Below, piece by piece: positions 1,663 through 64,000 of a DNA stretch of 64,000 nucleotides. The position numbers and the translations under genes are program-made. Within the stretch, counting starts at the first letter, position 1. Each line of letters starts with the position of its first letter. A model generated the notes under the pieces. It worked only from the letters and a program-made list of their open reading frames with translations. It was not told the origin of the DNA and made no database searches. Source of the stretch: Corynebacterium appendicis CIP 107643 (lineage in GTDB: Bacteria; Actinomycetota; Actinomycetes; Mycobacteriales; Mycobacteriaceae); assembly GCF_030408415.1 (NCBI RefSeq), contig NZ_CP046976.1, positions 1-64,000 on the forward strand, written 5' to 3'.

Positions 1663-1673
1663 GCTTATCGACG
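1663..1673 (+). repeat. first copy of the dispersed 11-mer GCTTATCGACG
   Basis: This is one of 13 exact copies of GCTTATCGACG found on either strand. Plus-strand copies start at 1663, 7720, 25972, 44198, 50013, 53588, 61390 and 63577. Minus-strand copies start at 7939, 17199, 46606, 49254 and 55680. This copy lies 7 nt after the dnaA stop and just before the dnaA terminator. The base two positions after the 11-mer is C in most copies. No known corynebacterial site of this sequence comes to mind, and the function is unknown. Confidence 0.85.
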
Positions 1674-1681
1674 CCGCGTCC

Positions 1682-1721
1682 GCGCGCCATGGAGGAACAC
1701 CGACTCCATGGCGCGCTTTTT
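1682..1721 (+). terminator. intrinsic terminator of dnaA
   Basis: A perfect 13-bp stem (GCGCGCCATGGAG at 1682-1694 paired with its complement at 1704-1716) encloses a 9-nt loop and is followed by five T residues. It lies 26 nt after the dnaA stop codon. Confidence 0.93.
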
Positions 1722-2234
1722 GTTGTCCATCAATTGCAAGTTTTCACACTGATTCAGTTATCCACAGAGTTGTACACACTTGTGTAATTCCATCGTTGTA
1801 ATTAAGTTGAGTTCGTCACATATACGTTCTCCACAGGATGAAAGCGCTGTCCACAGGCGTGAGAGAAATGTGTGAGTTAGCGGTGGAATGACACGGTGAC
1901 GTTGTGGGAAACGGGATGGGCCGAAAAGTTATCCACACCTAGACCGAGTTATCCACAGAAATTGCACACCTGTGCCCCACAAGCGAAACGCCGCGCCGAC
2001 GTGGCGCAATGGGATGTGATCCACAGACTTCACAGCGCCTACTGTTACTCCCAATCTTTTTCCTAGTATTGAAACCAAGGGAAAGAGAGCGTGGGGACAA
2101 CTCCGCCAGGCCTGCCCGCTGACGCTGACAGCTAGGGGCAGCCTTCCGTTGAGGTGAAACCACGCACCGCTTAAGGTGAGTTGGACATGAGCTCACCTGA
2201 CGAACGGCAGCGCTAGCAAGGAGCAACGAGGACC
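1722..2234. other. oriC: oriC: dnaA-dnaN intergenic region with DnaA boxes
   Basis: This non-coding stretch is the canonical location of the actinobacterial origin. Exact DnaA boxes TTATCCACA lie at 1758-1766, 1929-1937 and 1949-1957. Near matches are at 1827-1835 (TTCTCCACA), 1847-1855 (CTGTCCACA) and 2017-2025 (TGATCCACA), all in the same orientation. The 1735-1830 part is clearly more AT-rich than the surrounding DNA and is a candidate unwinding zone. The dnaN promoter should lie in the right-hand part. The exact unwinding element cannot be placed by eye. Confidence 0.9.
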
Positions 2235-3422
2235 ATGGACGACAACAACGTGTCATTCCGCGTGCACAAGGACGATCTTTCGGATGCCGTCGCATGGGTT
2301 GCACGAAACCTGCCCACGAGGAACACGCAGCCGGTGCTCCGCGCCGTGGTGATCACGGCGGACGACAACGGACTGGAGCTGGCTGGCTTCGACTACGAGG
2401 TCTCCACTCGCGTGCGCATCAGTGCCGAGGTCACTGAGCCGGGCCGGGTAGCTGTCGCCGGCAAACTGATGGCAGACATCGTGTCGAATATGCCGGCTAA
2501 GCCGGTCGAGGTGTCCGTCGATAATTCGCGTCTTCTGCTGCAGGGAGGCTCCGCGCGCTTCGAACTGCCGCTGATGCCTCTCGACGATTACCCGCAGCTG
2601 CCCACCCTGCCGGAAGTCACCGGCACCCTGGACACCTCGACCTTTGTCAATGCTGTCACCCAGGTCGCTTCGGCTGCCGGCCGCGACGACACCCTGCCGA
2701 TGCTCACCGGTGTGCACATGGAGATCGCCGGCAACAAGGTGAACCTGGCCGCCACCGACCGTTTCCGTCTGGCGCTTCGCTCCTTGGAATGGGATCCGGT
2801 CGCAGGCGACGTGCAGGCGAAGCTGCTCGTCCCGGCGAAGACGCTGCTGGATAACGCGCGCACGCTGGATTCCCACCTCCAGGATCCGGTGGAGATCGCG
2901 GTGGGCACCGGTGAGAATGTCGGTGGCGACGGCCTGTTCGGCCTGCACTCGCAGAACCGCGAGACCACGACCCGCATGCTGGACGCTGAATTCCCGAATA
3001 TTCAGCCGCTGCTGCCGAAGACGCACACGTCGATGGCCTCGGTGGAGATCGCGCCGCTGGTGGAGGCGATCCGCCGCGTCAGCCTAGTCGCCGACCGCAA
3101 CGCGCAGCTGCGCATGCACTTCAAGCCGGGCGAGGTCTCGCTGTACGCCTCCGGCGCCGATTCCGGTGAGGCGTCCGAGTCGCTGCAGTGCGCGTTCACC
3201 GGTGCCGACGAGCTGCTCATCGCTTTCAACTCCGGCTACCTCCGCGACGGTCTGAGCGTCATTCCGACCAAGCGCGTCGTCTTTGGATTCACCGAGGCGT
3301 CCCGCCCGGCGATCATGATCCCGGAGCCGGAGGAAATGCCGGAGGCGGGCGCGGACGGCACGTTTGAGACCCCGGCGACGGACTTCACCTACCTGCTCAT
3401 GCCGGTGCGCCTGCCGGGATAG
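2235..3422 (+). CDS. dnaN: DNA polymerase III beta sliding clamp
   Basis: DnaN is the ring-shaped processivity factor that tethers DNA polymerase III and other clamp-binding proteins to DNA. The product has 395 residues, the normal length for actinobacterial clamps, and shows the three repeated clamp folds. Recognisable features are the N-terminal VARNLPTRNTQPVL segment, the central LPMLTGVHMEI strand region and the C-terminal end TYLLMPVRLPG that forms the peptide-binding pocket. The ATG at 2235 follows AAGGAG at 2219-2224. recF starts 3 nt after the stop, so dnaN, recF and the DUF721 gene form one operon downstream of oriC. Confidence 0.98.
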   Translation: MDDNNVSFRVHKDDLSDAVAWVARNLPTRNTQPVLRAVVITADDNGLELAGFDYEVSTRVRISAEVTEPGRVAVAGKLMADIVSNMPAKPVEVSVDNSRLLLQGGSARFELPLMPLDDYPQLPTLPEVTGTLDTSTFVNAVTQVASAAGRDDTLPMLTGVHMEIAGNKVNLAATDRFRLALRSLEWDPVAGDVQAKLLVPAKTLLDNARTLDSHLQDPVEIAVGTGENVGGDGLFGLHSQNRETTTRMLDAEFPNIQPLLPKTHTSMASVEIAPLVEAIRRVSLVADRNAQLRMHFKPGEVSLYASGADSGEASESLQCAFTGADELLIAFNSGYLRDGLSVIPTKRVVFGFTEASRPAIMIPEPEEMPEAGADGTFETPATDFTYLLMPVRLPG

Positions 3423-3425
3423 CAC

Positions 3426-4622
3426 GTGTTTGTCCGTGAACTCGATCTGCGCGATTTCCGCTCCTGGCCGGAGCTGAATCTCGAGCTGGATAAAGGAGTC
3501 ACAGTCTTCTCCGGCCGCAACGGCCACGGCAAGACCAATATCGTCGAGGCGGTCATCTACTCGGCGACGCTGTCCAGCCACCGTGTCTCCAACGACCAGC
3601 CGCTGGTGCGCGCGGGCGCGCAGAATGCCCGGGTGTCGGTGACCACGGTCAACGAGGGCCGCGAGTTGACGACGCACCTGCTGATCAAGCCGAAGGAGGC
3701 GAATCAGGCGCAGATCAACCGCACCCGGCTGAAATCGCCGCGGGAAATTCTCGGCGTCCTGCGCACGGTGGTCTTCGCGCCGGAGGACTTGGCGCTCGTC
3801 GTGGGCGAGCCGGGAGAGCGCCGCCGTTTCCTCGACGGCTTGGCCAGCATCCGCACTCCGCGCTTCGGCGGCGCGAAGGCGGATTACGACAAGGTCCTGC
3901 GCCAGCGCAACGCCCTGTTGAGGTCGCAAAACATGCTGCTGCGCCGCGGCTACAACGACGACCAGGGTGCGAGCGCGCTGTCCACGCTCGACGCCTGGGA
4001 CATGCAGCTCGCGTCGCTCGGCGCGCAGGTGATCGCGGGAAGAAAAAAGCTGGTGGGGGAGCTCTCCCAACCAGTCCACGACGCGTACGCCTCGGTGGCG
4101 CCGGAGTCGCGTCCGGCGAGCATTAATTATGTGTCGACGGTGGATGGGGGCGTCGACAAGCTCGCCGGCGTGGATACCTCCGACCCGGAGATTCTCGAGG
4201 CCGCTTTTCTCACTGAGCTGGCCCGGAGGCGCAGGGAGGAGATCGACCGCGGCACGACGCTGGTCGGCCCGCACCGCGACGACCTTGTGCTGATGCTCGG
4301 CGACCAGCCGGCGAAGGGGTACGCGAGCCACGGCGAGACCTGGTCGTTCGCGCTCTCGCTGCACTTGGCGGAGTACGCGCTGTTGGCGTCCGACGGCGCG
4401 GAACCCGTGCTGATCTTGGACGATGTCTTCGCTGAACTCGACGCTAAGCGGCGTCAGCGCCTCGTGGCCGTTGCGGAGAAGACCGAGCAGGTGCTCATCA
4501 CTGCCGCCGTCGGGGATGACCTGCCTGAAAATCTCGACGACCATGTCTCCGCGCGCTACGGCGTTGTCATGGAGGACAGCGACGACGGGCGGCGCGTGTC
4601 GCGGATCGAGGAAGCCTCGTGA
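3426..4622 (+). CDS. recF: DNA replication and repair protein RecF
   Basis: RecF is an SMC-like ATPase that helps load RecA at single-strand gaps during recombinational repair. The 398-residue product starts [13 protein letters not shown], has the Walker A region [16 protein letters not shown] near residues 30-45, the ABC-type signature region [18 protein letters not shown] and Walker [12 protein letters not shown] near the C-terminus. The start is GTG at 3426, only 3 nt after dnaN, and the stop overlaps the next gene's GTG as GTGA. Both arrangements indicate translational coupling in the dnaN-recF-DUF721 operon. Confidence 0.97.
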
Positions 4623-7710: not shown

Positions 7711-7755
7711 CGCATTTTCGCTTATCGACGACCGCGTTCGGCGGAGGTTGGCTGG

Positions 7756-7788
7756 CGGCCGTTCGAGTATGAGCTCGGGCGGCCGTTT
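7756..7788 (+). terminator. probable gyrB terminator hairpin
   Basis: CGGCCG (7756-7761) pairs with CGGCCG (7780-7785), and CGAG pairs with CTCG inside the stem. A short T-run follows. A GCTTATCGACG motif copy lies just upstream at 7720, 9 nt after the gyrB stop. Confidence 0.6.
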
Positions 7789-7825: not shown

Positions 7826-8725
7826 ATGAGCGAAAACAGTCATTCACGCGACTACACCTTCGTCAACGCAGATGTGACATTGCCAGACGAGACGACCTCG
7901 CCGGTGTTCGTGTTTCCGGCACAGGGGGGAGCGGGGATCGTCGATAAGCCATTGGTGGCTATTTGGCCTGGTTTCGGCATGGGCGCGCGGTACTTCCGGC
8001 CCACGGCGCAGGAACTGGCGGACCGCGGCTACCCGGTCGTGATCGGCGAGCTCCGCGGGCAGGGGAGGAGCAACGCCAAGGCGTCGCGTAAGGCGCGTTG
8101 GGGCTACCACGACACCGCCTCGGAGGATTACCCCGCGACGATCCGTGCGGCGAAGGAGGAGCTCGGTCTTCCAGTGGACCACCCGACGGTGCTGTTGACG
8201 CACTCGATGGGCGGCCAGGTGGCATCGCTGTTCCTCGCCCGCCCGGAGGCGAAGGAGCTCAACGTCGTGGGCATGATGGGCGTTGGCACCGGCAGCCCGT
8301 ACAAGGAGAGTTTCGTGGGGGCGGACCGCCGCCGGGTCGCCTACGGCAGCTTGTTCATGACGGCGGTGTCGAAGGTGTTCGGCTACTGGCCTGGGGGGAA
8401 GGTGGATCTTGCCGGGTACGGCCGGCAGTCCGGCGTGCACGTGCAGGAGTGGACGCGGTTCGCGCACTCGAATTCGCTGGCGAATCTGAAGGGCCAGGAC
8501 ATCGACTACGAGGCGGCAATGAAGAAGGTCACCGTCCCGATTCTGCTCACGCGGTTTACTGACGATGACGACTGCACGCTGGCGTCGGCGGCGTATCTGG
8601 CGGACAAATTCGATCCGGATGAAGTCCGCATTGAGCAGCTGATCGGCGGACTCGGCCACACGAAGTGGGCGCGCAATCCGGAGCGGGTCGCCGACCGGCT
8701 AGAGAAGTTCGTGGCGTCGCTTTAA
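7826..8725 (+). CDS. alpha/beta hydrolase
   Basis: This 299-residue protein has the alpha/beta-hydrolase fold. The visible parts are the N-terminal GFGMGARYFRPTAQELADRG region (oxyanion strand and first helix), the nucleophile elbow THSMGG with the presumed catalytic Ser, and a C-terminal His in GGLGHTKWA. The substrate cannot be read from sequence; a lipid or carboxyl-ester substrate is typical of the family. The ATG at 7826 was chosen because the upstream in-frame sequence overlaps the gyrB terminator and is not protein-like. A copy of the GCTTATCGACG motif lies in codons for Val-Asp-Lys (7939-7949). It is convergent with bsaP-bioB. Confidence 0.85.
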   Translation: MSENSHSRDYTFVNADVTLPDETTSPVFVFPAQGGAGIVDKPLVAIWPGFGMGARYFRPTAQELADRGYPVVIGELRGQGRSNAKASRKARWGYHDTASEDYPATIRAAKEELGLPVDHPTVLLTHSMGGQVASLFLARPEAKELNVVGMMGVGTGSPYKESFVGADRRRVAYGSLFMTAVSKVFGYWPGGKVDLAGYGRQSGVHVQEWTRFAHSNSLANLKGQDIDYEAAMKKVTVPILLTRFTDDDDCTLASAAYLADKFDPDEVRIEQLIGGLGHTKWARNPERVADRLEKFVASL

Positions 8726-10144: not shown

Positions 10145-10807
10145 TTAGCTGTCGAGCGCCTGCTGCCAGAAGTCGGCCTCGAGGCGGGTCGCCGTGCGGA
10201 AAATGTCCAGCAGGCGCTCGAAGCGTTTCGTGCCCTTGATCTCCTCAGCGGGCACCCCCAGTAGGTCGTCGAGAAGCTTCGTCATGGCTACCGCCTGGTT
10301 CTGGAAATCGTCGCCGGCGTATTCCTGGATCCACTCCGCGTACGGGTGCTCGGCGTTCTCCTTGAGCTTCGGTTCTAAGTAGGTGCCGATTTCCGCGTAG
10401 CCGATCTGGCACGGCGCGAGCGCGATCTGCAGCTCCAGCAGGTCGCCCGCCATGCCCGTGTCGAGCACGTAGCGGGTGTAGGCGACCGTGGACTTCTTCT
10501 CAGGCGCGCGCTCGAGCTCCTCGGTGGAAATGCCCCAGCGCTCCGTCAGGCGGCGGTGGAGATTCGTCTCGTGGATGGTGGCGGACAGGCCCTGCGCCGC
10601 GGATTCGACCTCGGCGAGCGTGCGGGACTTGTACGCAGCGAGCGCATTCGCGCGGGCGTACTGCACGAGGAAGAGGTAATCCTGCACCAGGTAGTCCTGG
10701 AAGACCGGGAGGGGCAGCGTGCCCTCGCCGAGATCCTCGACGAACTTGTGGTGGATGTACGCGTCCCACTCGGGGGAGTCCTGCTTGAGAAGCTCCAGAA
10801 GATTCAT
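10145..10807 (-). CDS. tenA: TenA family aminopyrimidine hydrolase (Cys type)
   Basis: TenA (thiaminase II) hydrolyses aminomethyl-pyrimidine products of thiamine breakdown to HMP for salvage. The 220-residue product has the family landmarks FQDYLVQDYLFL, ETNLHRRL and APCQIGYAEIG, the last holding the presumed catalytic Cys, and the C-terminal Glu-rich helix ATRLEADFWQQAL. It lies 4 nt downstream of a second TenA-family gene, and both are under the TPP riboswitch at 11467-11598. An AGAGGTG sequence precedes its ATG. Thiamine shortage should therefore switch both on. Confidence 0.93.
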   Translation of the reverse strand: MNLLELLKQDSPEWDAYIHHKFVEDLGEGTLPLPVFQDYLVQDYLFLVQYARANALAAYKSRTLAEVESAAQGLSATIHETNLHRRLTERWGISTEELERAPEKKSTVAYTRYVLDTGMAGDLLELQIALAPCQIGYAEIGTYLEPKLKENAEHPYAEWIQEYAGDDFQNQAVAMTKLLDDLLGVPAEEIKGTKRFERLLDIFRTATRLEADFWQQALDS

Positions 10808-10811: not shown

Positions 10812-11462
10812 TTACACCTCTAGCGGTTGCTCGTAGGAATTGTTGAAGAAGTCCAGCTCGAGGGCGACAGCCCGGCCGAAGTACTCCTCGACGACCTCGC
10901 GGTTGTCCGGGCCGACACGGTCGACCTCGCTGCGGAGGAACTCCACCAGGTCGTGGAACTCCGGGTAATCGTGCAGCTCGATCCATTCGTTGTGGACGAA
11001 GCTCTCCGGGCGCTTCTCCGGGGCGTTGGTGGCCCAGTCGAGGTACAGCCACTCCGCGACGACGAGGACACCGAGGGCGGCGGCGTAGGAGCGGGTCTCG
11101 GCCGCCTCGCGCATCAGGCTCGTGAAACCGGTGCAGGCGGAGGTGTCCGGGGTGTTGTCGCGCTGCTCGACGGTAACACCGAGCTCCTTAAAGGAGCGGA
11201 GGAAATACGTGTTCTCGTCGCCCGCGACCTCGCCGATGAACTGGGAGAGACGCAGACGCGGGGCGAGCTCGTCCGCGGTGGACATTGCCGCACCGAGCAG
11301 CTGCAGGAAGCTGTCCAGGAAGCGGTAGTCCTGCACGAGGTAGCCGGCCATGACACCGTCGTCGATCGTGCCGTCGAAAAGCTCCTGCACGAAGCGGTGA
11401 CCCACTGCGGCGTCCCACTTCTCGCGGTGGGCGTCACGCAGCTCGTCGCTGAATCTAGTCAA
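10812..11462 (-). CDS. TenA family protein (Cys-less, TenA_E-like)
   Basis: This 216-residue TenA paralogue is the first gene after the riboswitch. It shares GYLVQDYRFLDSFLQLLGAAM and the C-terminal ALELDFFNNSYEQPLEV with TenA proteins. At the position of the catalytic Cys of the downstream copy it reads VAEWLYLDWA, the pattern of the TenA_E subgroup, which uses acidic residues and probably acts on a formylated or otherwise modified pyrimidine. That division of labour is inferred. The start is TTG at 11462 with AAGGA seven bases upstream; the AAGGA is within the riboswitch expression hairpin. Confidence 0.85.
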   Translation of the reverse strand: MTRFSDELRDAHREKWDAAVGHRFVQELFDGTIDDGVMAGYLVQDYRFLDSFLQLLGAAMSTADELAPRLRLSQFIGEVAGDENTYFLRSFKELGVTVEQRDNTPDTSACTGFTSLMREAAETRSYAAALGVLVVAEWLYLDWATNAPEKRPESFVHNEWIELHDYPEFHDLVEFLRSEVDRVGPDNREVVEEYFGRAVALELDFFNNSYEQPLEV

Positions 11463-12628: not shown

Positions 12629-12849
12629 TGTGTCTCATTCGGCCGGGCGCGGCGGATGCTGGCCTGCAAGGCTGCGCGGCCGGGGACGGTGTCGTGGGCG
12701 AGGGAGGCAACGGCGGCGTCGTCAAGCAATCTGCTTGCGGAAATGATTACCGCGCGTTTGGCTGCCTCCTGTTTGCTGCACCCCCATGCGCTGGCGAGCA
12801 GGACGAGCGCGCGGTCTTCCTCCGCGGACAGCCTGAGCGTCATAGCCAT
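12625..12849 (-). CDS. ribbon-helix-helix antitoxin
   Basis: A 74-residue protein with an N-terminal ribbon-helix-helix fold (MTLRLSAEEDRALVLLASAWGCSKQEAAKRAVI) and a C-terminal tail rich in Ala and Arg that would wrap the toxin. RHH proteins of this type are the usual partner of actinobacterial Doc toxins and repress their own operon. A perfect palindrome lies 8 bp upstream of the ATG (12858-12874), which supports this. ATG 12849 is used; an internal ATG two codons on (12843) is equally possible. The transcript may be leaderless. Confidence 0.75.
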   Translation of the reverse strand: MAMTLRLSAEEDRALVLLASAWGCSKQEAAKRAVIISASRLLDDAAVASLAHDTVPGRAALQASIRRARPNETQ

Positions 12850-12949: not shown

Positions 12950-15571
<2,622 letters not shown>

Positions 15572-17900: not shown

Positions 17901-17980
17901 TATAGAGTCCAGGCCATTTCTTCGTCGAGAAGCGGAAGTCCCACAGAACCTTGTTACAACCCTGGTATACCCTTAGAGGC

Positions 17981-46592: not shown

Positions 46593-46599
46593 CGAACGC

Positions 46600-46640
46600 A
46601 AGGCCCGTCGATAAGCGAAATGCTCCTATCGGCGGGCCTT
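46600..46640 (+). terminator. tRNA-Leu terminator overlapping a GCTTATCGACG copy
   Basis: AAGGCCCGTCGATA (46600-46613) pairs with TATCGGCGGGCCTT (46627-46640), a 14-bp stem with one wobble pair. The reverse-complement motif CGTCGATAAGC (46606-46616) forms the upper stem and part of the loop. Confidence 0.85.
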
Positions 46641-48231: not shown

Positions 48232-48818
48232 CCCCAGTCGCCGAGCGCGCCCTCCAGCGCCCCCAGCGCGGCCGCGGCGATCGGCTCCCTCGCCTCATTC
48301 GGGCAGCCCGCGTCCACCCAGTCCAAGCACACCGCCTCGACGAACCCCAGGAAGCCGGACACAGCGATCGGACGGTCCCCGACCACGCCAAGCAGCTTGT
48401 CGACGACCCCGTCCCTCCTCTCAATCCCCACGAACTGCGCCTCAGCCGGGGTGTCTCCCCGCGTGACCGCCGCCCACGACAGCGGGTCCGCCGCGATGTG
48501 GTCGAGGTAGCTCACAAGCAGCGCCCGCACCGTGTCCCGTCTCGGCGAATTCGGCGGCAACTGGGCCGCCGCCCTCCCCATCTCTTCGTCCAGACGGTCC
48601 AAACGGCGCTCCACCACCGCCGCGTAGATCTCCGCCTTCGACGGGAAGTGGTGGAACAAGAGCCCCTCGGAGACCCCGCATGCCTGCGCCACTGCGTGCG
48701 TGGAGACACCGTTGTATCCATGCTCCGCGAACATAGCGCCCGCGACATCCAGGATCTGCGCCCGCCGCTGCACGACCGGCAACCTGCGCCTGAGAGCCCG
48801 CGCTTCCTGTTCAACCAT
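48228..48818 (-). CDS. TetR family transcriptional regulator
   Basis: A 196-residue repressor-type protein. The N-terminal HTH reads ILDVAGAMFAEHGYNGVSTHAVAQACGVSEGLLFHHFPSKAEIYAAVV (about 22-69), followed by a helical ligand domain. It is convergent with glsA (4-nt overlap of 3' ends) and divergent from the GH13 glycosidase, separated by 91 bp. Either the glycosidase or its own gene is the most plausible target; no clear palindrome was seen in that gap. Confidence 0.85.
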   Translation of the reverse strand: MVEQEARALRRRLPVVQRRAQILDVAGAMFAEHGYNGVSTHAVAQACGVSEGLLFHHFPSKAEIYAAVVERRLDRLDEEMGRAAAQLPPNSPRRDTVRALLVSYLDHIAADPLSWAAVTRGDTPAEAQFVGIERRDGVVDKLLGVVGDRPIAVSGFLGFVEAVCLDWVDAGCPNEAREPIAAAALGALEGALGDWG

Positions 48819-54602: not shown

Positions 54603-55591
54603 TGGTTCTCCTCGTTTTCCTCGTCCTTGACCATCGGCATGTCGTGCATGTCCTCGCCGATCTTCGGTTCGCTGGCGCTCTCGGAATCCTCGGTGTCCGG
54701 TTGGCCAACTTGGCCAGCGTGGTCGGCCTGGTCGGCTTGCTCAGCCTGCTCCGCCTTCAATTGCAGCTCAGCGGATGACTCCGCAAGCAGCGCGGCAATT
54801 TGGTCGAGGGCGTCCTGGCAGTCCTGCTCGGAGCCGTCGAGGGAGCGGGCAGCGATGGCGACGCCGTAGTCGGTATCGCCGGCGGTGAAGAAGCCGAGCT
54901 GTCGGACATGGAAAGAACCGTCGTCGGCGTCGGACCAGCCGCCCTTGAACGGCAGGTCGTCAATGGTGCCCAGGCCGTAGCTGTGCTCGGCGTCGATCTT
55001 GTGCATCTCCTGGATGACGGGGTTGTCGGCGGGCACGGACGCCAAGTGCTGGGCGTAGCGGGCTTGGGCGGGGATGGGCCAGTTGGTCATGCCGAAGGCG
55101 GGCTCGACATGGACAGACACGCCTGCCTTGGCGATCTCGTCGCCGACGAGCTGGCTAGCTTCCGCGTCGGAGCCGAGGCAGCGCCAGAGGTAGTAAGCGG
55201 CGTCGTTGTCCGACCACTCGATGGCTGCGGTGGTCTGCTCGACGACGAAGTCCTTGTCGTCGCAGTGCTCCCAGGCAGTCAGGGCGATGGGGACCTTGAT
55301 GGTGGACCAGGCAGGCAGGACGCCGCCAGAGCCGGAGTTGGTGGGGGGAGTGGAGCCGTCGAAAAGCGAGAAGCTTGCTTGCGTGTTGGTGGCGGCCTCA
55401 ATCTCGGCGATCTTTCCGTCGAGCCCCTCGAAGTGCGGTGCGGCGGACTCGGGCGCTTCGCTGTCGGCGGGGGCGGAGGGCGGAGCCGGATCGGCGGGCT
55501 CGGGCGCAGGCCCGGAACACGAGGAAAGAGCCAGGGGAAACAGCGCGAGCAGAGCCGCTAGACGACGCTTCCCGGATGCGGTGTTGATCAC
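54599..55591 (-). CDS. beta-lactamase-fold lipoprotein
   Basis: A 330-residue lipoprotein with lipobox LSSC (C25), a Pro/Ala/Glu-rich linker and a domain carrying all three serine beta-lactamase/transpeptidase motifs in correct order and spacing: S96-TIK99 (SxxK), S127-DN (SDN) and K215-GG. A class A beta-lactamase-like or peptidoglycan-modifying fold is therefore likely, but an EPxxN-type omega-loop Glu was not recognised, so activity is uncertain. After about residue 270 comes an acidic tail with repeats of EQAEQADQADHA. It is coupled by ATGA to the M20 gene. Confidence 0.75.
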   Translation of the reverse strand: MINTASGKRRLAALLALFPLALSSCSGPAPEPADPAPPSAPADSEAPESAAPHFEGLDGKIAEIEAATNTQASFSLFDGSTPPTNSGSGGVLPAWSTIKVPIALTAWEHCDDKDFVVEQTTAAIEWSDNDAAYYLWRCLGSDAEASQLVGDEIAKAGVSVHVEPAFGMTNWPIPAQARYAQHLASVPADNPVIQEMHKIDAEHSYGLGTIDDLPFKGGWSDADDGSFHVRQLGFFTAGDTDYGVAIAARSLDGSEQDCQDALDQIAALLAESSAELQLKAEQAEQADQADHAGQVGQPDTEDSESASEPKIGEDMHDMPMVKDEENEENQ

Positions 55592-55641: not shown

Positions 55642-57024
55642 ATGGGAGCGTTAGAGCTTGTGGGAAGCGTTGACGGGGCCGTCGATAAGCTGATCGAGCT
55701 ATACACTGCTGCCTGCGATGTCGCGCGCGACGGCGGGGACTACGCGCAGGTGTTGTACCCCAAAATCGCGGTGGACATCAAGGAATGGAAGCCGATCGAC
55801 CGCTCCCAGCCCTTCGGCTACGTCGACGAGGCCGGGGTGTATTCGGCGGCGGTGTCGCGCCCGGACCTCATGTCGGACTACCTGCGCCACCAGTTGCGCT
55901 GCCTGACGGACAACTACGACGCGGAAATCTCCGTCGGCTACTCCGACATCGGGATCGCGCCAGAGTACATCCGCGGCGCACAGCGCAGGCCGGACGCGAA
56001 AACTCCGCGCCCCACGCTCGACGACGTGCACGACGCGATTATCGACGGCGACTGGGACGCCTTTCACGGTCCCGAGAAGCCGCTGTTCCACTTCGGGCCG
56101 CAACGTTTCGACATCGCCTGCGCGCGCATCGAGCACTACACCGGCATCGAGGTCGACTCGGTCCAGAAATTCATCCTGTTCACGAACTACGAGATGCACA
56201 CGCGCGAATTCGTGAAATTCGGGCTGAGCCAGCTTGCCGACGACGCCACGCGCTACAACGCGCTAATCCTCCCCAACGGGACCCGCATCGAGCGCGGCGA
56301 CGTGGACGACATCGACGCGCTGGCGATGAACCTCGCCTCGAAGTACCAGATGCCGCGCTTCGATCTCGTAGCCGACGGCAACAACGGCGTGACCATGATC
56401 AACATCGGCGTCGGCCCGTCGAACGCGAAGACGATCACGGACTGTCTGGCTGTCCTGCGCCCCGAATGCTGGATCATGATCGGCCACTGCGCCGGCCTGG
56501 ACGCCCGCATGCGCATCGGCGACCTCATCCTGGGCAACGCGTACGAGCGCCGCGACCACGTCCTGCACAGCCACATCGACCCCGAAACGCCCATTCCCGC
56601 CGTGCCGGAAATCCAGCGGACGCTGGAGAAATCCGTGAAGAAGATCTACGGCGAGGAAGAGCAGTCGCTCATGCGCACCGGTACGGTGCTGTCCACCGAC
56701 GACCGTAACTGGGAGTGGCAGGCCCCGCGCGATCTGTGGGAATGGCTGCGGAATTCGACGGCGGCGGCGGTGGACATGGAGTCCTGCACCATCGCCGCGA
56801 ACGGCTACCGCTACCGAGTGCCTTACGGCACTCTGCTTGCCGTGTCCGACCTGCCGCTGCACGCCGTGCCGAAGCTGCCGGCCGCCGCGCAGGCCTTCTA
56901 CTCCAACTCGAAGGAAGCCCACGTCATGTGTGCGGTGCGTGCCGTGGAGCGCCTGGCCAAGAACCCGGAGCGACTGCGCACCCGCAAGCTGCGTCACGCG
57001 CTGGGCGAGGTTCCGTTCCGGTGA
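55642..57024 (+). CDS. amn: AMP nucleosidase
   Basis: Amn splits AMP to adenine and ribose 5-phosphate and so buffers the adenylate pool. The 460-residue protein has the N-terminal Amn domain (about 1-170) and the C-terminal nucleoside-phosphorylase-like domain with GVGPSNAKTITDCLAVLRPECWIMIGHCAGLD, VDMESCTIAANGYRYRVPYGTLLAVSDLPLH and the conserved MES substrate motif. Its stop overlaps the sirtuin start (GTGA). A GCTTATCGACG copy is at residues 14-17 (AVDK). Downstream coupling to an NAD-consuming enzyme suggests shared control of adenylate or NAD metabolism. Confidence 0.95.
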   Translation: MGALELVGSVDGAVDKLIELYTAACDVARDGGDYAQVLYPKIAVDIKEWKPIDRSQPFGYVDEAGVYSAAVSRPDLMSDYLRHQLRCLTDNYDAEISVGYSDIGIAPEYIRGAQRRPDAKTPRPTLDDVHDAIIDGDWDAFHGPEKPLFHFGPQRFDIACARIEHYTGIEVDSVQKFILFTNYEMHTREFVKFGLSQLADDATRYNALILPNGTRIERGDVDDIDALAMNLASKYQMPRFDLVADGNNGVTMINIGVGPSNAKTITDCLAVLRPECWIMIGHCAGLDARMRIGDLILGNAYERRDHVLHSHIDPETPIPAVPEIQRTLEKSVKKIYGEEEQSLMRTGTVLSTDDRNWEWQAPRDLWEWLRNSTAAAVDMESCTIAANGYRYRVPYGTLLAVSDLPLHAVPKLPAAAQAFYSNSKEAHVMCAVRAVERLAKNPERLRTRKLRHALGEVPFR

Positions 57025-57974
57025 CATCCAGCTTCCCCGAGCCAGAATTCACCGACCCGGCGGTCGAGCTCGCCCACCGCAGCGCGATCCGCTCCATCGA
57101 GCGCGTGGTGCACGAGACCGCGACGCCGACGCCGCCAGACCAGGCGCTCGACTACGTCGCAGACCTGTTGCGGAACGGTCCGGCGCTCATCGTCACGGGT
57201 GCAGGGGTGTCAACAGCTTCAGGCATCCCGGACTACCGCTCGCCGGGCGGCCGCTTGTCCAAGGGCCGCCCGATGACGTACCAGGAGTTCGCGCACTCGC
57301 GTGCTGCGGTCCGCCGCTACTGGGCGCGCGCGTACGTGGGCATCCGGCAGATGCGCGCCACGTCGCCGAACCGCACGCATTTCGCGCTCGTGGAGCTGGA
57401 GCGAGCCGGGCTGATCAGCGGAATCATCACCCAAAACGTTGACGGGCTCCACGCGGAAGCCGGCTCCCGCAACGTCATCGCCCTCCATGGGGACATGGAG
57501 CACGTCGTGTGCCTCGATTGCGGTTTCAAGGAAGCACGCTCGCTTTTCGACGCCCGCCTCGAGCAGGCCAACCCCGGCTACCTGCAATCAGTCCTGGTGG
57601 ACGAGTCTATGATCAACCCCGACGGCGACGTCGAACTGCCGGAGCAGGCTGTCCAGTCCTTCACCATGGTCGACTGCACGCAGTGCGGGGGCTGGCGCAT
57701 GAAGCCGGACGTGGTCTATTTCGGGGAGAACGTGCCGGGGGAGCGTCGAAAAGCGGCCGCTGAGTGGCTGGATGCCTCGACGTCCCTGATCGCGGTGGGC
57801 ACTTCGCTGGCTGTGATGAGCGGATACCGCCTGGTCCTCGACGCGCGCGGCGCAGGCAAACCCGTCGCCGTGATCAACGGCGGGCCCGGGCGCGCCGACA
57901 CGAAAGCCGCGGCCGTGTGGCGCACCGACGTCGGCGACGCCCTCGACGCGATTTTGGATGCCCTCGACATCTAG
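57021..57974 (+). CDS. sirtuin (Sir2 family NAD-dependent protein deacylase)
   Basis: A 317-residue Sir2 protein that would use NAD to remove acyl groups from lysines. Motifs are TGAGVSTASGIPDYRSPGG (NAD), TQNVDGLH and LHGDMEHVVC (catalytic His), the zinc Cys pairs CLDC and CTQC, and GTSLAVMSGYRLV. The region between the zinc pairs is unusually long (about 60 residues). GTG 57021 overlaps the amn stop by four bases. A Sir2 coupled to AMP nucleosidase is unusual and worth noting. Confidence 0.9.
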   Translation: MTSSFPEPEFTDPAVELAHRSAIRSIERVVHETATPTPPDQALDYVADLLRNGPALIVTGAGVSTASGIPDYRSPGGRLSKGRPMTYQEFAHSRAAVRRYWARAYVGIRQMRATSPNRTHFALVELERAGLISGIITQNVDGLHAEAGSRNVIALHGDMEHVVCLDCGFKEARSLFDARLEQANPGYLQSVLVDESMINPDGDVELPEQAVQSFTMVDCTQCGGWRMKPDVVYFGENVPGERRKAAAEWLDASTSLIAVGTSLAVMSGYRLVLDARGAGKPVAVINGGPGRADTKAAAVWRTDVGDALDAILDALDI

Positions 57975-58021: not shown

Positions 58022-59287
58022 GTGAAACAGCTGGCAGGACGTACGACCGTAATCGCAAGCCTAAGTGTGCTTGTGGTGCTCATCGCGCTGCGCTACGCGG
58101 CCAACTACGAGTCCCTGAACAGCGTGTTCAAGACTGATGTGCCGCTCGACCTGTGGATCTACATGCGCGGCGGCGAGCGCGTCACCGACGGGGTGAACCT
58201 CTACGAAGGCGCCATCTACAACGACCTGCCGTTCACGTACCCGCCGTTCGCGGGCATGATCTTCGCGTGGGTGAGCATGCTTGACGACGCCTCCGTCACC
58301 GCCATCTGGCACACCACCACCATTGCGTGTGTCATGGTCGTCGTCTGGCTGTGCCTGCGGCGGATGAAAGTCGACGTGAACCCGATGTCCTTCCTGCTGA
58401 TCATCCCGCTGCTCGCCGCGTTCTTCCTGCTCGGCACCGAGCCCCTTCACGCCACGATGTTCTGGGGGCAGATCAACGTGGTGCTCATGCTGCTCGTGTG
58501 CCTCGACTTCCTGCCGCTGAAATACCGGCTGCCCGGCATCGGCGTCGGATTGGCCGCCGGGTTGAAACTGACGCCCGCGTTCTTCGGCATCCTGTTCCTC
58601 ATCCAGCGCCGCTGGTGGGCCGCTGCCGGCAGCTTCCTGACGTTCCTGGTCACCGTCGGTCTCGGATTCCTGGCGGTCCCCGATGCGAAGGCTTTCTGGT
58701 CCGACGCCATTTTCAACTCCGGCCGCGTCGGCGACCACACCAACCCCGGCGCCCAGTCCTTGAAATCCGTGCTGGTGCGCAACCTCGGTGTTGAATCCGC
58801 CGACATGTGGATGCTCGCCGTGATCGCCGCCGTCGCCGTCGTCGCGTACGCCGCCTGGCTGGCCGTCAAGCTCGACTGCATTCCGGCCGCCGTCGGCATC
58901 ACCGGCTTCGGAGCGTGCCTCGTTTCCCCATTCACCTGGTACCACCACTGGGTGTGGATCATCCCCGTCGCCGTGACCGTCTTCGTCGCCGCGAACCAGG
59001 CTGCAGCCCATTTTGCCTGTGGAAACGCCGCGCGATGGCAGTTCGCTGGGCTGCTGTCCGTCGGCGCGCTCGTCTTGGTGTCGGCGCCGTTCGTGGGCAT
59101 CAGCGTCGCCGCTAACCTGTTGATGGAATGGAACCCCGACCGGGGCTTCTCCTGGATGTACGTGCCGGGTGCGCTGGTGTTCCTCGCGGTCTTCCTCATC
59201 TACGCCCTGGTGGAACGACGCCGTATCGCGCTCGCGCGAGACCGCAGGTGGCTAGAGCTGCAGCGCGCTGAACTCGGTGTGGGGTAG
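58022..59287 (+). CDS. GT87 family polyprenyl-phosphomannose mannosyltransferase
   Basis: A 421-residue membrane glycosyltransferase with about ten to eleven hydrophobic segments. The periplasmic loop DLWIYMRGGERVTDGVNLYEG carries the catalytic Asp region, and FTYPPFAGMIF and TWYHHWVWIIP are the GT87 signatures. Family members such as MptC/MptD add alpha-1,2-mannose branches to lipomannan and lipoarabinomannan, consistent with a corynebacterial envelope. GTG 58022 is the start, probably leaderless or with a very short leader. It lies 47 nt after the sirtuin. Confidence 0.88.
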   Translation: MKQLAGRTTVIASLSVLVVLIALRYAANYESLNSVFKTDVPLDLWIYMRGGERVTDGVNLYEGAIYNDLPFTYPPFAGMIFAWVSMLDDASVTAIWHTTTIACVMVVVWLCLRRMKVDVNPMSFLLIIPLLAAFFLLGTEPLHATMFWGQINVVLMLLVCLDFLPLKYRLPGIGVGLAAGLKLTPAFFGILFLIQRRWWAAAGSFLTFLVTVGLGFLAVPDAKAFWSDAIFNSGRVGDHTNPGAQSLKSVLVRNLGVESADMWMLAVIAAVAVVAYAAWLAVKLDCIPAAVGITGFGACLVSPFTWYHHWVWIIPVAVTVFVAANQAAAHFACGNAARWQFAGLLSVGALVLVSAPFVGISVAANLLMEWNPDRGFSWMYVPGALVFLAVFLIYALVERRRIALARDRRWLELQRAELGVG

Positions 59288-60549: not shown

Positions 60550-62202
60550 ATGAGTGAACGCGCCCCATCGCTCCTAGACGCGACGTGCGAGGATTTCGTG
60601 TACGATCTCGCCGAGCTCTCGCCGACGCTCGCGACGGAGCTCGGCATTGCCGGCCACGACGACCAGCTGCAGGACTTCAGCCCGCAGCACTGGAACGACA
60701 TCGCGGACCGCATCCGCGACCTCATCGCGGACGTCGACGCGCTTCACGACGGCACCGACGCCTCCGACGACGACGACGATTTCGACGAGGTCGATTACGT
60801 CACCGGCGCGATCCTGCGTGACCGCATGCTGGTGGAGCTGGAGCTGCACCACCGCGGCGAGAATCTGCGCATGCTCAACAACGTCACGTCGCCGGTGCAG
60901 ATCATCCGCAACGCTTTGCGGGTCATGCCGAAGGAGACGGCGGAGGACCTGGACAATCTAGCGGAGCGCATGCTGCATGTGCGGCGGTCGCTGGCGGGCT
61001 ACCGTGAGTCGTTGGCGGAGGCGGCGGGGCAGGGCGATGTGGCCTCGCAACGCCAGATCGATGCTGTGATCAGCCAGTGCGAGGCGCTCGCGGAAGACGG
61101 CTCGTTGCTTGAGTCGATGGGGCTGGCGATTGATTCGGAGCCGGTGTCGCAGGCGAAGAATGCGTTCGCCGAGATGGCGGATTGGCTTTCGACTGAGCTC
61201 GCGCCGCTGGCCTCCCACGAGGATTCGGTGGGGCGCGACCGCTACGAGCTCTTCTCCCAGTTCTTCCTGGGCCGCGAGATCGACCTCGATGAGGCGTATG
61301 CGTGGTCGCTGGATGCGCTGGCACAGATCGTCGAGAGGCAGCAGAAGGTCGCGCACGAGCTGTTCAGCGAGGAATGCACAGCGCGCGGCGCTTATCGACG
61401 GCTCGATGAAGACCCCCACTACACCCTCACCGACAACGACGTCCTGGTGGAGTGGATGCAGAAAGTCTCCGACCAGATGATCGAACGCCTCGACGGCGAA
61501 ATGTTCACGCTGCCGGAAGAGGTCAAGCACCTGGACTGCCGCGTCGACGCCGCTGGCACCGGCGGAATGATGTACACTGCCCCGTCCGAGGACCTCGCGC
61601 GCCCCGGCATCCTGTGGTGGTCGGTCCCGCAAGGCCAGGACGGCTTTCACGCGTGGCACGAGCTTGCCCGCATCTGCCATGAGGGCGTGCCCGGTCACCA
61701 CGTGCAGCAGAGCATCGCGATGGCGCAGCGCTCCACACTGAACCTGTGGCGCCGCACCCTGAACTGGAATGCCGCCCACGGCGAAGGCTGGGCCGTCTAC
61801 GCCGAGACCCTCATGGAAGACTTGGGCTATTTCGACGACCCCGGCTACCGCATGGGCCTGCTCGACTCGCTGCGGATGCGTCTCGCGCGCGTTGCCGTCG
61901 ACATCGGCGTCCACCTGGGCAAGAAGACTCCCGACGGCACCGGCCACTGGGACGCCTCCTACGCCAAGGCCTTCCTGCGCGACAACACGGCTATGAACGA
62001 GCAGAACCTGAGCTTCGAGCTCGACCGCTACATGGGCTGGCCGGGTCAGGCGACTTCGTACGCCCTCGGTTACCGCGACTGGATGGACCTGCGCGAAAAG
62101 GCGCGCGAGCAGGGCATGACTCTGCGCGAATTCCACGACAAGGCGCTGCGCCTGGGCTCCATGCCGATGGACATGCTCGCGCGCGAGGTGCTCTGCCGTT
62201 AG
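60550..62202 (+). CDS. DUF885 family putative metallopeptidase
   Basis: A 550-residue protein of the DUF885 family. The zinc-site-like motif HEGVPGHH is at residues 377-384 (HExxxGHH), followed by NAAHGEGWAVYAETLM and a C-terminal YALGYRDWMDLREKAR, both characteristic of the family. There is no signal peptide, so it acts in the cytoplasm; a carboxypeptidase-like or amidase-like activity is presumed. A GCTTATCGACG copy lies in AYRRL codons (61390). Confidence 0.82.
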   Translation: MSERAPSLLDATCEDFVYDLAELSPTLATELGIAGHDDQLQDFSPQHWNDIADRIRDLIADVDALHDGTDASDDDDDFDEVDYVTGAILRDRMLVELELHHRGENLRMLNNVTSPVQIIRNALRVMPKETAEDLDNLAERMLHVRRSLAGYRESLAEAAGQGDVASQRQIDAVISQCEALAEDGSLLESMGLAIDSEPVSQAKNAFAEMADWLSTELAPLASHEDSVGRDRYELFSQFFLGREIDLDEAYAWSLDALAQIVERQQKVAHELFSEECTARGAYRRLDEDPHYTLTDNDVLVEWMQKVSDQMIERLDGEMFTLPEEVKHLDCRVDAAGTGGMMYTAPSEDLARPGILWWSVPQGQDGFHAWHELARICHEGVPGHHVQQSIAMAQRSTLNLWRRTLNWNAAHGEGWAVYAETLMEDLGYFDDPGYRMGLLDSLRMRLARVAVDIGVHLGKKTPDGTGHWDASYAKAFLRDNTAMNEQNLSFELDRYMGWPGQATSYALGYRDWMDLREKAREQGMTLREFHDKALRLGSMPMDMLAREVLCR

Positions 62203-62219
62203 GGAATAGACGCTAAGCC

Positions 62220-63284
62220 CTAGCGCTTCCCGCGCCTGTCGATCGCCCGCAGAATCTTCGGTAGCGACCCCGCGAACAGCAGGATGCAGATCAGGCGGAT
62301 CAGCTGAAGCGCCACGACGGCCGGCCCGCCGCCACCTTCGGAGGACAGCGCCAGCACGGTCTCGATCGCGCCGGGGCTGGTGGCCAGGTAGCCCTCGAAG
62401 AACGTGATGTCCAGCCACACCGACACGACGGCGCCCATCGCGGCGCACGACACCATGACCACCACGATGAACGTGATGGTGGCGGGCAGCAGTGTGGCGA
62501 ACCGTTTCAGCGCCGGCACGCTCAGTCCGCCGCCGCAGACCCAGCCGATGGACATGAACGCCGTGACGGCGAGCGGCTCCGGCGGGGCGATGGGCACGGG
62601 AAGCAGCGTCGCAATCACGGCGGTGAGGATCAGCGGCCCGAACACCGCCGGTGCCGGAAGGTGGACCTTGCGGGCGATGGGCTCGCCGATCAACGCGATG
62701 GCGATGACGAGCAGCCACATCCACCAAGTCACCTCCAGCCCGGCGGAGTGGTTCTCGCCGGGGTGGGTGAGAAACGACGCAACGAGGGGCAGGGTCATTG
62801 AGACAGCGAGCAACCGCAGGTACTGGGTGAGGGCGACGTAGCGCATGTCGGCGCCGAGTTCGTCGGCAAGCGTCATCATGATGGACGCGCCGCCCGACAG
62901 CATGGACAGGACGCCGGTCTCGCGGCTGACGGTGAGCTCGTCGCCGTGGCTTTTGCGCGCGGAGTATTGCGCAAGCGTGAGCCCGCCGACGAAGCCGATG
63001 CCGATGATCACGGCCGCTGAGACGAGCCCGGGTAGCAGGTAGTGCAGCAGTTCCGCGGGCGGGACCCCGGCGAGCGGCAGGGCGGCGAGCACGCCGATGA
63101 TGCCGCGGCAGAAATTGTAGAACTTCGCGTTGACCTTTAGCTCGCGGCCTGTTCCCAGCGCTGAGATGCCGGACACCACGATCGCGCCGAGGATCCAGGC
63201 GGCGGGCACGTGGAGCCGGGCGAGCACGAATCCGAGGAGCACCGAGAGCGGTGCGACAATCATCCATCGGTTGCGTTGTTCCAC
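62220..63284 (-). CDS. AbrB family membrane protein
   Basis: A 354-residue membrane protein with about ten hydrophobic segments in two related halves. It belongs to the AbrB/ammonia-monooxygenase-like family (Pfam PF05145). The loops LHVPAAWILGAIVVSGI and LSGGASIMMTLADELGADMRYVALTQYLRL and the C-terminal ATSPGAIETVLALSSEGGGG repeats are typical. The transported molecule is unknown. It is convergent with DUF885 and divergent from the TSUP gene (26 bp between start codons). Confidence 0.82.
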   Translation of the reverse strand: MEQRNRWMIVAPLSVLLGFVLARLHVPAAWILGAIVVSGISALGTGRELKVNAKFYNFCRGIIGVLAALPLAGVPPAELLHYLLPGLVSAAVIIGIGFVGGLTLAQYSARKSHGDELTVSRETGVLSMLSGGASIMMTLADELGADMRYVALTQYLRLLAVSMTLPLVASFLTHPGENHSAGLEVTWWMWLLVIAIALIGEPIARKVHLPAPAVFGPLILTAVIATLLPVPIAPPEPLAVTAFMSIGWVCGGGLSVPALKRFATLLPATITFIVVVMVSCAAMGAVVSVWLDITFFEGYLATSPGAIETVLALSSEGGGGPAVVALQLIRLICILLFAGSLPKILRAIDRRGKR

Positions 63285-63310
63285 GGTTGGTCATAGTAGC
63301 GTGGGGGTTC

Positions 63311-64000
63311 ATGTTCGCTTTGTTGGTCGCCGCTGCAGCTCTCGCGGGCTGGGTCGATGCGGTGATCGGGGGCGGCGGGCTCGTCCTCATTCCGGTGCTG
63401 ATGGCAGGCACGTCGATGCCGCCGGCGGCGATCTTGGCGACGAATAAAGTGGCGGCGGTCTTCGGCACGGCGTCCGCGGCCGTCACGCTCGTCCGCCGCG
63501 TGGGCGTGCCCCGCCAGACGTGGGGTTACGCGCTCATCGCCGGGGCACTGTCAGCAGTGGGTGCGCTTCTCGCGTCGCTTATCGACGCCTCCCTTCTCCG
63601 CCCCCTCATCCTCGTCCTCCTCATCGCCGTGGGCGTGTTCGTGGCGCTGAAACCGGAATTCGGCACGAGGCAGTCGCTGGAGGATCAACCGGTGCTCACC
63701 CCGCGCCGGGTTCTCGCCGCCGCTGGTTTGGTTGCCGTGATCGGGTTTTACGACGGAACCTTCGGCCCCGGCACCGGCATGTTCCTCATCATGGGATTCA
63801 CGGCGCTGTTCGCCCAGAACTTCCTGCGCTCCGCCGCGATGGCCAAAGTGATCAACACCGCGACGAATCTCGGTGCACTGGCGGTGTTCATCGCAGGCGG
63901 GTTCGTCGACTGGCCGTTGGCTATCGCACTCGCCGTGGCCAATATCGTCGGCGCACAGATCGGAGCCCGCACAGTGCTGGGCGGCGGTGCGAAACTGGTG
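63311..64000 (+). CDS. TauE/SafE (TSUP) family membrane protein, incomplete at window end
   Basis: The visible 230 residues start MFALLVAAAALAGWVDAVIGGGGLVLIPVLMAGTSMPPAAILATNKVAAVFGTASAA, the first TSUP repeat. Later FYDGTFGPGTGMFLIMGFTALF begins the second. Family members export sulfite, sulfonates or organic acids. A GCTTATCGACG copy encodes LIDA (63577). The window ends before the stop codon; about 20-25 residues are missing. Confidence 0.88.
   Translation, partial: MFALLVAAAALAGWVDAVIGGGGLVLIPVLMAGTSMPPAAILATNKVAAVFGTASAAVTLVRRVGVPRQTWGYALIAGALSAVGALLASLIDASLLRPLILVLLIAVGVFVALKPEFGTRQSLEDQPVLTPRRVLAAAGLVAVIGFYDGTFGPGTGMFLIMGFTALFAQNFLRSAAMAKVINTATNLGALAVFIAGGFVDWPLAIALAVANIVGAQIGARTVLGGGAKLV

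What the first reader, a model, noticed from the sequence alone, without database searches (positions are those of the whole stretch)
1663..63587. Strongly over-represented 11-mer GCTTATCGACG across the whole window
Thirteen exact copies on the two strands (plus strand 1663, 7720, 25972, 44198, 50013, 53588, 61390, 63577; reversed 7939, 17199, 46606, 49254, 55680), where random expectation for an 11-mer in 64 kb is well below one. Ten are inside genes but in different readings (LID, VDK, AYR, SIS). They force uncommon codons for this GC-rich genome, such as ATA, TAT, CTT and GAT. Three sit just after gene 3' ends. A one-mismatch form CGTCGTTAAGC occurs at 25323, 41812 and 59635. This points to selection on DNA, for example a DNA uptake, segregation, recombination or methylation signal. 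I know of no such signal in corynebacteria.
Basis: seen in the sequence. Interest (0 to 1): 0.78.

Follow-up and report, generated by a model that had tools for sequence, protein, structure and literature searches.

The report
Corynebacterium genome-wide DNA uptake signal
A short DNA word repeated hundreds of times across this Corynebacterium chromosome, present in several "dialects" in most species of the genus, looks like a self-recognition tag for taking up DNA, which until now was known only from two families of Gram-negative bacteria.

Summary
The chromosome holds 585, against 1 for the reversed word, about half on each strand. In a 22% sample of the genome, 100 copies stand in genes where synonymous-codon shuffles give 3.9. 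There is no leading-strand bias (65:67).

The word is the core of a larger asymmetric element. It is followed by a C-rich, G-poor tract of about 30-40 nt, in genes on either strand and between genes. The genus-level core GCTTNNCGAYG has 1387 copies here and is at least 4-fold over its reversed control in 184 of 242 Corynebacterium genomes, median about 1130 copies. It comes in nearly exclusive dialects: GCTTATCGACG (30 or more copies in 160 of 242) and GCTTGCCGATG (133-478 copies in 14). The window's form is at background in 140 other genomes of the family.

ComEA/ComEC, Tad-pilus, prepilin-peptidase and DprA genes are present. Best reading: a DNA uptake sequence, as in Neisseriaceae and Pasteurellaceae but unrelated in sequence, in a mycomembrane actinobacterium. 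No receptor was found and no uptake assay exists, so function is inferred.

The parts
1663..1706 (+). core GCTTATCGACG (1663-1673) plus 33 nt downstream; 6 nt after dnaA stop
   Evidence: C14 G10 downstream
7720..7763 (+). core (7720-7730) plus 33 nt downstream; 9 nt after gyrB stop; no C tract here
   Evidence: C9 G15
7906..7949 (-). core (7939-7949) plus C-rich tract, between genes (my gene calls)
   Evidence: C16 G6
17166..17209 (-). core (17199-17209) plus C-rich tract, in a polysaccharide-deacetylase-like gene, read SLIDD
   Evidence: C20 G2
25972..26015 (+). core (25972-25982) plus C-rich tract, read RLIDA in my gene call 25844-26356
   Evidence: C16 G5
44198..44241 (+). core (44198-44208) plus C-rich tract, antisense in a PP2C phosphatase gene, read SSISK
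   Evidence: C17 G3
46573..46616 (-). core (46606-46616); the downstream 33 nt run into tRNA-Leu; no C tract
   Evidence: C8 G15
49221..49264 (-). core (49254-49264), antisense in an alpha-amylase-family gene, read AVDKQ; weak tract
   Evidence: C12 G10
50013..50056 (+). core (50013-50023) plus C-rich tract, same gene, read LLIDA
   Evidence: C20 G6
53588..53631 (+). core (53588-53598) plus C-rich tract, antisense in my gene call 53232-54602, read DVDKL
   Evidence: C16 G8
55647..55690 (-). core (55680-55690) plus C-rich tract, antisense in an AMP nucleoside phosphorylase-like gene, read AVDKL
   Evidence: C15 G5
61390..61433 (+). core (61390-61400) plus C-rich tract, read AYRR in my gene call 60598-62202
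   Evidence: C15 G5
63577..63620 (+). core (63577-63587) plus C-rich tract
   Evidence: C21 G2
144..154 (+). variant core GCTTGTCGACG
4151..4161 (-). variant core GCTTGTCGACG
10267..10277 (-). variant core GCTTCTCGACG
11372..11382 (-). variant core GCTTTTCGACG
12717..12727 (-). variant core GCTTGACGACG
13987..13997 (+). variant core GCTTGTCGACG
14215..14225 (+). variant core GCTTCTCGACG
17923..17933 (-). variant core GCTTCTCGACG
18999..19009 (+). variant core GCTTGACGACG
20381..20391 (+). variant core GCTTCTCGACG
26395..26405 (-). variant core GCTTGACGACG
28345..28355 (+). variant core GCTTCTCGACG
28985..28995 (+). variant core GCTTGTCGACG
29945..29955 (+). variant core GCTTCTCGACG
32587..32597 (-). 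variant core GCTTTGCGACG
33474..33484 (-). variant core GCTTGTCGACG
35462..35472 (+). variant core GCTTTTCGACG
38111..38121 (-). variant core GCTTGACGACG
40820..40830 (-). variant core GCTTGCCGACG
43792..43802 (-). variant core GCTTGCCGACG
48395..48405 (+). variant core GCTTGTCGACG
52719..52729 (-). variant core GCTTTCCGATG
53486..53496 (-). variant core GCTTTACGACG
55357..55367 (-). variant core GCTTTTCGACG
56232..56242 (+). variant core GCTTGCCGACG
57542..57552 (+). variant core GCTTTTCGACG
57744..57754 (-). variant core GCTTTTCGACG
58279..58289 (+). variant core GCTTGACGACG
60741..60751 (+). variant core GCTTCACGACG
62861..62871 (-). variant core GCTTGCCGACG

Best explanation
GCTTATCGACG is the core of a DNA uptake sequence. 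It is a non-palindromic 11-bp core (genus consensus GCTTNNCGAYG) followed on its 3' side by about 30-40 bp of C-rich, G-poor DNA. Shown here: the enrichment, the anatomy, the lack of strand bias, the dialects, the background counts in a sample of other genera of the family, and the presence of competence genes. Inferred: a surface receptor belonging to the Tad (Flp) pilus / ComEA-ComEC transformation machine binds the element on free double-stranded DNA. DNA carrying it is then preferentially pulled through the mycomembrane and cell wall. Each round of uptake and recombination favours alleles that carry the sequence, so copies accumulate by molecular drive wherever the protein sequence permits (LID, VDK) or between genes. 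When the receptor's preference shifts, the genome converts to a new dialect.
For: 585 copies vs 1 reversed in the own genome; codon shuffles 100 vs 3.9. The degenerate core has 1387 copies vs 118 for its reversed control here, and is at least 4x its control in 184 of 242 Corynebacterium genomes, 153-2032 copies; PMC7811141 gives 1,465 USS cores for H. influenzae and 1,892 DUS for N. meningitidis (passage). Equal strands: 65:67 against replication in 504 kb; 17016:17059 over the 160 genomes with 30 or more copies. Core-plus-flank anatomy independent of coding: C 0.49-0.50 in the 30 nt downstream in noncoding, sense and antisense copies against 0.30-0.34 background, gone by about +50; dialect B has the same tract. 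Dialects: an unbiased k-mer scan of 160 kb of a species poor in the window's form gives GCTTGCCGATG (22 copies, 0.68 expected); genus-wide it reaches 133-478 copies in 14 of 242 genomes, 13 of which have 13 or fewer of the window's form, and two sister clades joined at 100 support (SH-aLRT, quick tree) carry different forms. Orthologous copies are kept in 25 of 50 aligned comparisons (overlapping, not independent) against 17.7% of all 11-mers. ComEC in 241/242, Tad ATPase in 239/242; own Tad locus, ComEA, prepilin peptidase and DprA. In Micrococcus luteus, another actinobacterium, Tad genes are required for transformation (PMC4322843, abstract and passages).
Against: No uptake experiment. The listings of 7 literature searches show no report of natural transformation or an uptake sequence in Corynebacterium (titles and abstract starts only; one search listed 15 of 23). 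ComEA, ComEC and Tad genes are just as present in motif-poor species, so gene presence does not track the motif. A residue-dialect test on Tad proteins did not single out a receptor. There is no excess of close-spaced copies such as Neisseria's inverted pairs (gaps under 200 nt 6 vs 7.0 random; under 500 nt 11 vs 16.8). Copies just after genes favour the gene's own strand 16:2, which uptake alone does not explain. Not every copy has the C tract: in 4 of 13 window copies C exceeds G by 4 or less, or is below it. The weaker tract of variant cores (C 0.42-0.43) is no stronger in the frequent variants than in the rare ones.
Confidence: 0.75

Rival explanations
1. A recombination or replication-fork signal (Chi-like, or KOPS/AIMS-like polarity marks) read by a moving enzyme.
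For: Short, asymmetric, genome-wide and lineage-specific; Chi-like words also differ between lineages (recalled).
Against: Such signals are strand-biased along the replichore (recalled); here 65 leading vs 67 lagging, and forward and reverse copies are equal over 160 genomes. An 11-bp core with a 30-40 bp flanking tract is longer than known Chi words (recalled).
Confidence: 0.07
2. Binding sites of a chromosome-organising or segregation protein (nucleoid-associated, SMC- or Noc-like) spread over the chromosome.
For: Genome-wide, both strands, roughly random spacing (CV 0.98 vs 0.99 random).
Against: Hundreds to 2000 copies per genome with wholesale dialect switches between sister clades call for a drive mechanism that a binding protein does not obviously provide; all 22 sampled 20-kb stretches hold 2-11 copies, without an obvious regional domain.
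Confidence: 0.1
3. A methylation or restriction-avoidance mark, or a highly iterated word such as cyanobacterial HIP1, of unknown function.
For: HIP1 shows that iterated words of unsettled function exist (recalled); methylation could not be tested here.
Against: HIP1 and type II sites are palindromic (recalled), this is not; restriction sites are usually depleted (recalled); a compositional tract on one side is not expected.
Confidence: 0.05
4. RNA-level element (terminator or Rho-utilisation-like C-rich tract) or codon/peptide preference.
For: 16 of 18 copies within 60 nt after a gene end lie in the gene's direction; the tract is C-rich and G-poor.
Against: 46 of 100 coding copies are antisense with the same tract; codon shuffles exclude amino-acid or codon usage as the cause.
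Confidence: 0.03

Closest known systems
DNA uptake sequence (DUS) of Neisseriaceae, with dialects
   Same: 10-bp word (GCCGTCTGAA), 1,892 copies in N. meningitidis, inside genes in permissive regions and between genes, species-conserved dialects congruent with phylogeny (PMC3630211 abstract and passages; PMC7811141 passages).
   Different: Unrelated sequence; long one-sided C tract; no excess of close-spaced copies; actinobacterium with a Tad pilus locus instead of the neisserial type IV pilus; receptor unknown (the minor pilin ComP in Neisseria, PMC12061091 abstract start in the listing).
Uptake signal sequence (USS) of Pasteurellaceae
   Same: 9-bp core with flanking AT-rich segments that contribute to uptake, 1,465 copies in H. 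influenzae, two versions described (passages).
   Different: Flanks there are AT-rich, here C-rich; sequence unrelated; receptor predicted there to be the minor pilin PpdA/ComN (PMC12616744 abstract).
Tad/Flp-pilus-dependent natural transformation of Micrococcus luteus
   Same: Same kinds of parts (TadA-B-C, Flp, TadE/F, ComEA/ComEC) in an actinobacterium (PMC4322843 abstract and passages).
   Different: That text holds no occurrence of 'uptake sequence' or of 'Corynebact'; there two tad clusters are needed, here I looked at one locus only.

Membership tests
DNA uptake sequences (DUS/USS) | Short word at hundreds to thousands of copies, far above codon-aware expectation | tested here: met
   585 exact and 1387 degenerate copies; 100 vs 3.9 in codon shuffles of a 22% sample
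DNA uptake sequences (DUS/USS) | Both orientations alike, no replication-strand bias (recalled as a DUS/USS feature) | tested here: met
   65:67 in 504 kb; 17016:17059 over 160 genomes
DNA uptake sequences (DUS/USS) | Lineage dialects, one main form per genome, following phylogeny | tested here: met
   A and B nearly exclusive (one genome, G023, has both), clustered on a 38-genome tree
DNA uptake sequences (DUS/USS) | Competence machinery in the same genome | tested here: met
   ComEA, ComEC, Tad genes, prepilin peptidase, DprA; but ComEA, ComEC and Tad genes are also in motif-poor species
DNA uptake sequences (DUS/USS) | Preferential uptake of DNA that carries the word | not testable with these tools
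   needs an uptake or transformation assay
DNA uptake sequences (DUS/USS) | Sequence-specific surface receptor (a minor pilin in Neisseria) | tested here: inconclusive
   residue-dialect association in 8 Tad-locus proteins (33 of 40 loci labelled) singled out none of the pilins; ComEA alignment read by eye only
DUS of Neisseriaceae in particular | Inverted close pairs at terminators | tested here: not met
   6 of 109 gaps under 200 nt, 7.0 expected at random; orientation of pairs not scored
Chi / KOPS / AIMS | Strand bias along the replichore | tested here: not met
   65:67
HIP1-like iterated palindromes | Palindromic word | tested here: not met
   GCTTATCGACG and its reverse complement CGTCGATAAGC differ (seen in sequence)
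Dispersed repeats (REP, MITE) | Repeated unit longer than the word, with conserved flanks | tested here: not met
   Flanks show composition bias but no near-invariant letters; none of the 4 direct and 6 inverted repeat groups of 30 nt or more overlaps an exact copy

The most novel reading that the evidence does not exclude
Corynebacterium has a genus-wide, independently evolved DNA-uptake-sequence system, the first outside the Gram-negative Neisseriaceae and Pasteurellaceae. It would work through a Tad pilus across a mycomembrane, use a core plus a one-sided C-rich tract, and show repeated dialect switches, perhaps including wholesale replacement by an unrelated word (CGCGRCGTCAT, 644 copies) in one species.
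Probability: 0.65. Interest if true: 0.92.

Novelty: new variant of a known kind. Interest (0 to 1): 0.86.

Why it matters
Sequence-specific DNA uptake has been described as unique to two Gram-negative families (PMC3630211 introduction passage). A third, unrelated case in a genus with an outer mycomembrane would show that self-recognition in transformation arises repeatedly, perhaps wherever DNA must cross an outer barrier. It would predict that most Corynebacterium species, including commensals, are naturally transformable. It would give a practical tag for genetic manipulation, and the many species with different dialects would let the receptor be found by comparison.

Tried and rejected
Presence or absence of ComEC and of the Tad ATPase as the cause of motif presence: both are nearly universal in the genus, so uninformative. 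Gene content of the Tad locus: a gene beside it (279 aa; HAD-phosphatase-like by recall, no family search made) is missing at that place in six dialect-B genomes, but two other dialect-B genomes have it, so it was dropped. Residue-dialect association as a receptor screen: TadZ (13 of 339 columns), TadB (12 of 173), TadC (7 of 154) and TadA (9 of 365) gave a larger share of high-scoring columns than the MrfA helicase control (7 of 772), but they are also more variable; TadE 1 of 96, TadF 0 of 98, Flp 0 of 51; inconclusive. Seven of 40 loci without a clear A or B form were left out of it, and G031 and G185 were counted with B. Regular spacing as a sign of chromosome organisation: spacing is close to random. 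Phage depletion: only one phage record was read (BFK20, one copy in 42.9 kb), whose host's motif status I do not know; no conclusion. Dialect search in G042, G010, G131 and G206 gave no comparable word; the best in G131, AGGTTCGACG, has 7 copies in 160 kb, 0.46 expected. The word D (TGGTGGCGTCG) found in G048 is weaker (235 copies there, 137 in G230, 82-98 in four more), so its link to the same system is a guess. The counts summed were transcribed by hand from the tables, with the 14 high values. The gene calls are my own simple caller, not an annotation.


Full report
Check. GCTTATCGACG occurs 13 times in the window, at exactly the stated places; shuffles give 0.05. In the complete 2,284,440-bp chromosome, whose first base is the start of dnaA, it occurs 585 times (303 forward, 282 reverse) while the reversed word occurs once. 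GyrB is 91-96% identical to the six nearest loci found, all Corynebacterium, among them C. urinipleomorphum and C. tuscaniense, so the organism is a Corynebacterium. I read 504 kb of the chromosome (window plus 22 stretches of 20 kb). In it, codon shuffles that keep every protein and each gene's codon usage give 3.9 copies in genes (maximum 9 of 100 shuffles); 100 are seen. 87 of these 100 use the two readings LID (48, sense) and VDK (39, antisense). Density is 0.24 per kb in genes and 0.35 between genes.

Anatomy. In the first 464 kb examined, 114 copies are exact. Position 5 is loose (C 24, G 25, T 24); the other single changes give 0-11 copies (two over 5); the two-letter variants GCTTGACGACG and GCTTGCCGACG have 21 each. 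On the 3' side of the core lies a C-rich, G-poor tract: C 46, 56, 47 and 37% in successive 10-nt bins, G down to 16%, back to background by about +50; nothing comparable upstream. It is equally strong in noncoding (32), sense (54) and antisense (46) copies (C 0.49-0.50 against 0.30-0.34 background), and nearly absent from a control set of 45 LID-like words (C 0.35). It is thus a property of the DNA, not of codons. Variant cores have a weaker tract, C 0.42-0.43, whether the variant is frequent or rare. In 4 of the 13 window copies C exceeds G by 4 or less, or is below it.

Distribution in the genome. No replication-strand bias (65:67, taking the terminus at mid-genome), spacing close to random (CV 0.98 vs 0.99; gaps under 500 nt 11 vs 16.8 expected), 2-11 copies in each of the 22 stretches. 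Aligned orthologous copies in relatives are intact in 25 of 50 comparisons, against 17.7% for all 11-mers; the comparisons overlap and are not independent. Of 18 copies within 60 nt after a gene end, 16 point the gene's way; this is unexplained.

Distribution in the genus. Of 242 Corynebacterium genomes (own included), 160 have at least 30 exact copies (maximum 782) and 77 have 13 or fewer. Of 21 named Corynebacterium genomes checked (21 of the 28 Corynebacterium loci that I had), examples are C. urinipleomorphum 529, C. glaucum 499, C. aurimucosum 128, C. mastitidis 44, C. phocae 2 and C. mendelii 0; five genomes from other genera have 1-7. In 140 other genomes of the same family (30 genera besides Corynebacterium) the counts are 0-7 in 1.9-8.5 Mb.

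Dialects. An unbiased k-mer scan of 160 kb of G001, which has 8 copies of the window's word, gives GCTTGCCGATG as the top 11-mer (22 copies, 0.68 expected by an order-4 Markov model), with GCTTGTCGATG and GCTTACCGATG at 7 each. Genus-wide this form reaches 133-478 copies in 14 of 242 genomes and 0-37 in the rest, 8 in the own genome. 13 of the 14 have 13 or fewer copies of form A; G023 has both (45 A, 210 B). Form B has the same C tract. The degenerate core GCTTNNCGAYG covers both: 1387 copies here against 118 reversed, at least 4-fold over the reversed control in 184 of 242 genomes (153-2032 copies, median about 1130), 2-4-fold in 13, under 2-fold in 45. Six genomes with 4 or fewer copies of A and little B have 1495-1973 copies of the degenerate core, so further dialects exist. 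On a 38-genome tree of MrfA+TadA the A/B/neither labels need 9 changes against 17.3 for shuffled labels, and two sister clades joined at 100 support (SH-aLRT, quick tree) carry different forms; in the A-labelled one of these the commonest variant in five Tad loci is GCTTGCCGACG, not GCTTATCGACG.

Outliers. G011 has a different word, CGCGRCGTCAT, 644 copies (315 forward, 329 reverse), 42 or fewer in the other 241 genomes, with few one-letter variants except at the last position (A 12 copies against T 29 in 120 kb) and no C tract. It may be a replaced uptake word or another system. G048 has TGGTGGCGTCG, 235 copies. G042, G010, G131 and G206 gave nothing comparable.

Machinery. The own genome has ComEA-ComEC; a Tad locus with TadZ-, TadA-, TadB- and TadC-like genes (the name TadZ rests on position, as the protein has no Pfam match) and three small pilin-like genes. 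The first of these has the G/XXXXEY processing site (GMSTIEY) named in PMC4322843; the names TadE and TadF rest on position and on recall. A prepilin peptidase and DprA are present. ComEC is in 241 of 242 and the Tad ATPase in 239 of 242 Corynebacterium genomes, motif-poor ones included. ComEA was found in all 39 loci examined. In M. luteus the Tad genes are required for transformation and the authors think it likely also in other actinobacteria (abstract and passages).

Reading. Copy number, permissive readings, core plus flanking tract, and clade-specific nearly exclusive dialects are together the profile of DUS/USS. The two Gram-negative families are described as unique in requiring such words (PMC3630211). 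Wholesale dialect conversion at hundreds of sites is hard to explain without a drive such as uptake plus recombination (for the drive model see the passage). Chi/KOPS-like signals fail on strand bias; RNA or codon explanations fail on the antisense copies and shuffles. What is missing is function: no uptake data, no receptor (inconclusive), and the listings of my searches show no report for Corynebacterium in the open-access library held (titles and abstract starts only). The four papers used were seen as abstract and/or passages, not whole. Statements marked recalled come from no call.

Noticed in passing
G011 (L205-L209, L174): A species-specific word CGCGRCGTCAT, 644 copies on both strands, few one-letter variants except at the last position, no C tract; 42 or fewer copies in the other 241 Corynebacterium genomes.
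   Followed up: partly
G048 (L200-L204): TGGTGGCGTCG, 235 copies, T-rich before CGACGCCACC and C-rich after it; 137 copies in G230 and 82-98 in four more genomes.
   Followed up: partly
own genome, 504 kb sample: 16 of 18 copies lying within 60 nt after a gene's 3' end point in the gene's direction, as at dnaA (1663) and gyrB (7720); perhaps reused in transcript ends.
   Followed up: no
G023: The one genome with both forms (45 GCTTATCGACG, 210 GCTTGCCGATG): a possible dialect transition.
   Followed up: no
L148 (G131, near comEC): A 10-bp word (CGCACGCGGA and overlapping words) 20 times in 20 kb, probably a tandem repeat.
   Followed up: no
L164-L169 against L155: A 279-aa gene beside the Tad locus (HAD-phosphatase-like by recall) is not found at that place in six dialect-B genomes.
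   Followed up: partly
G123, G183, G060: ComEC matches with stop codons inside the match; only noted.
   Followed up: no
window: AGTTATCCACA occurs 5 times in the window, a DnaA-box-like word (recalled), in keeping with an origin near dnaA.
   Followed up: no
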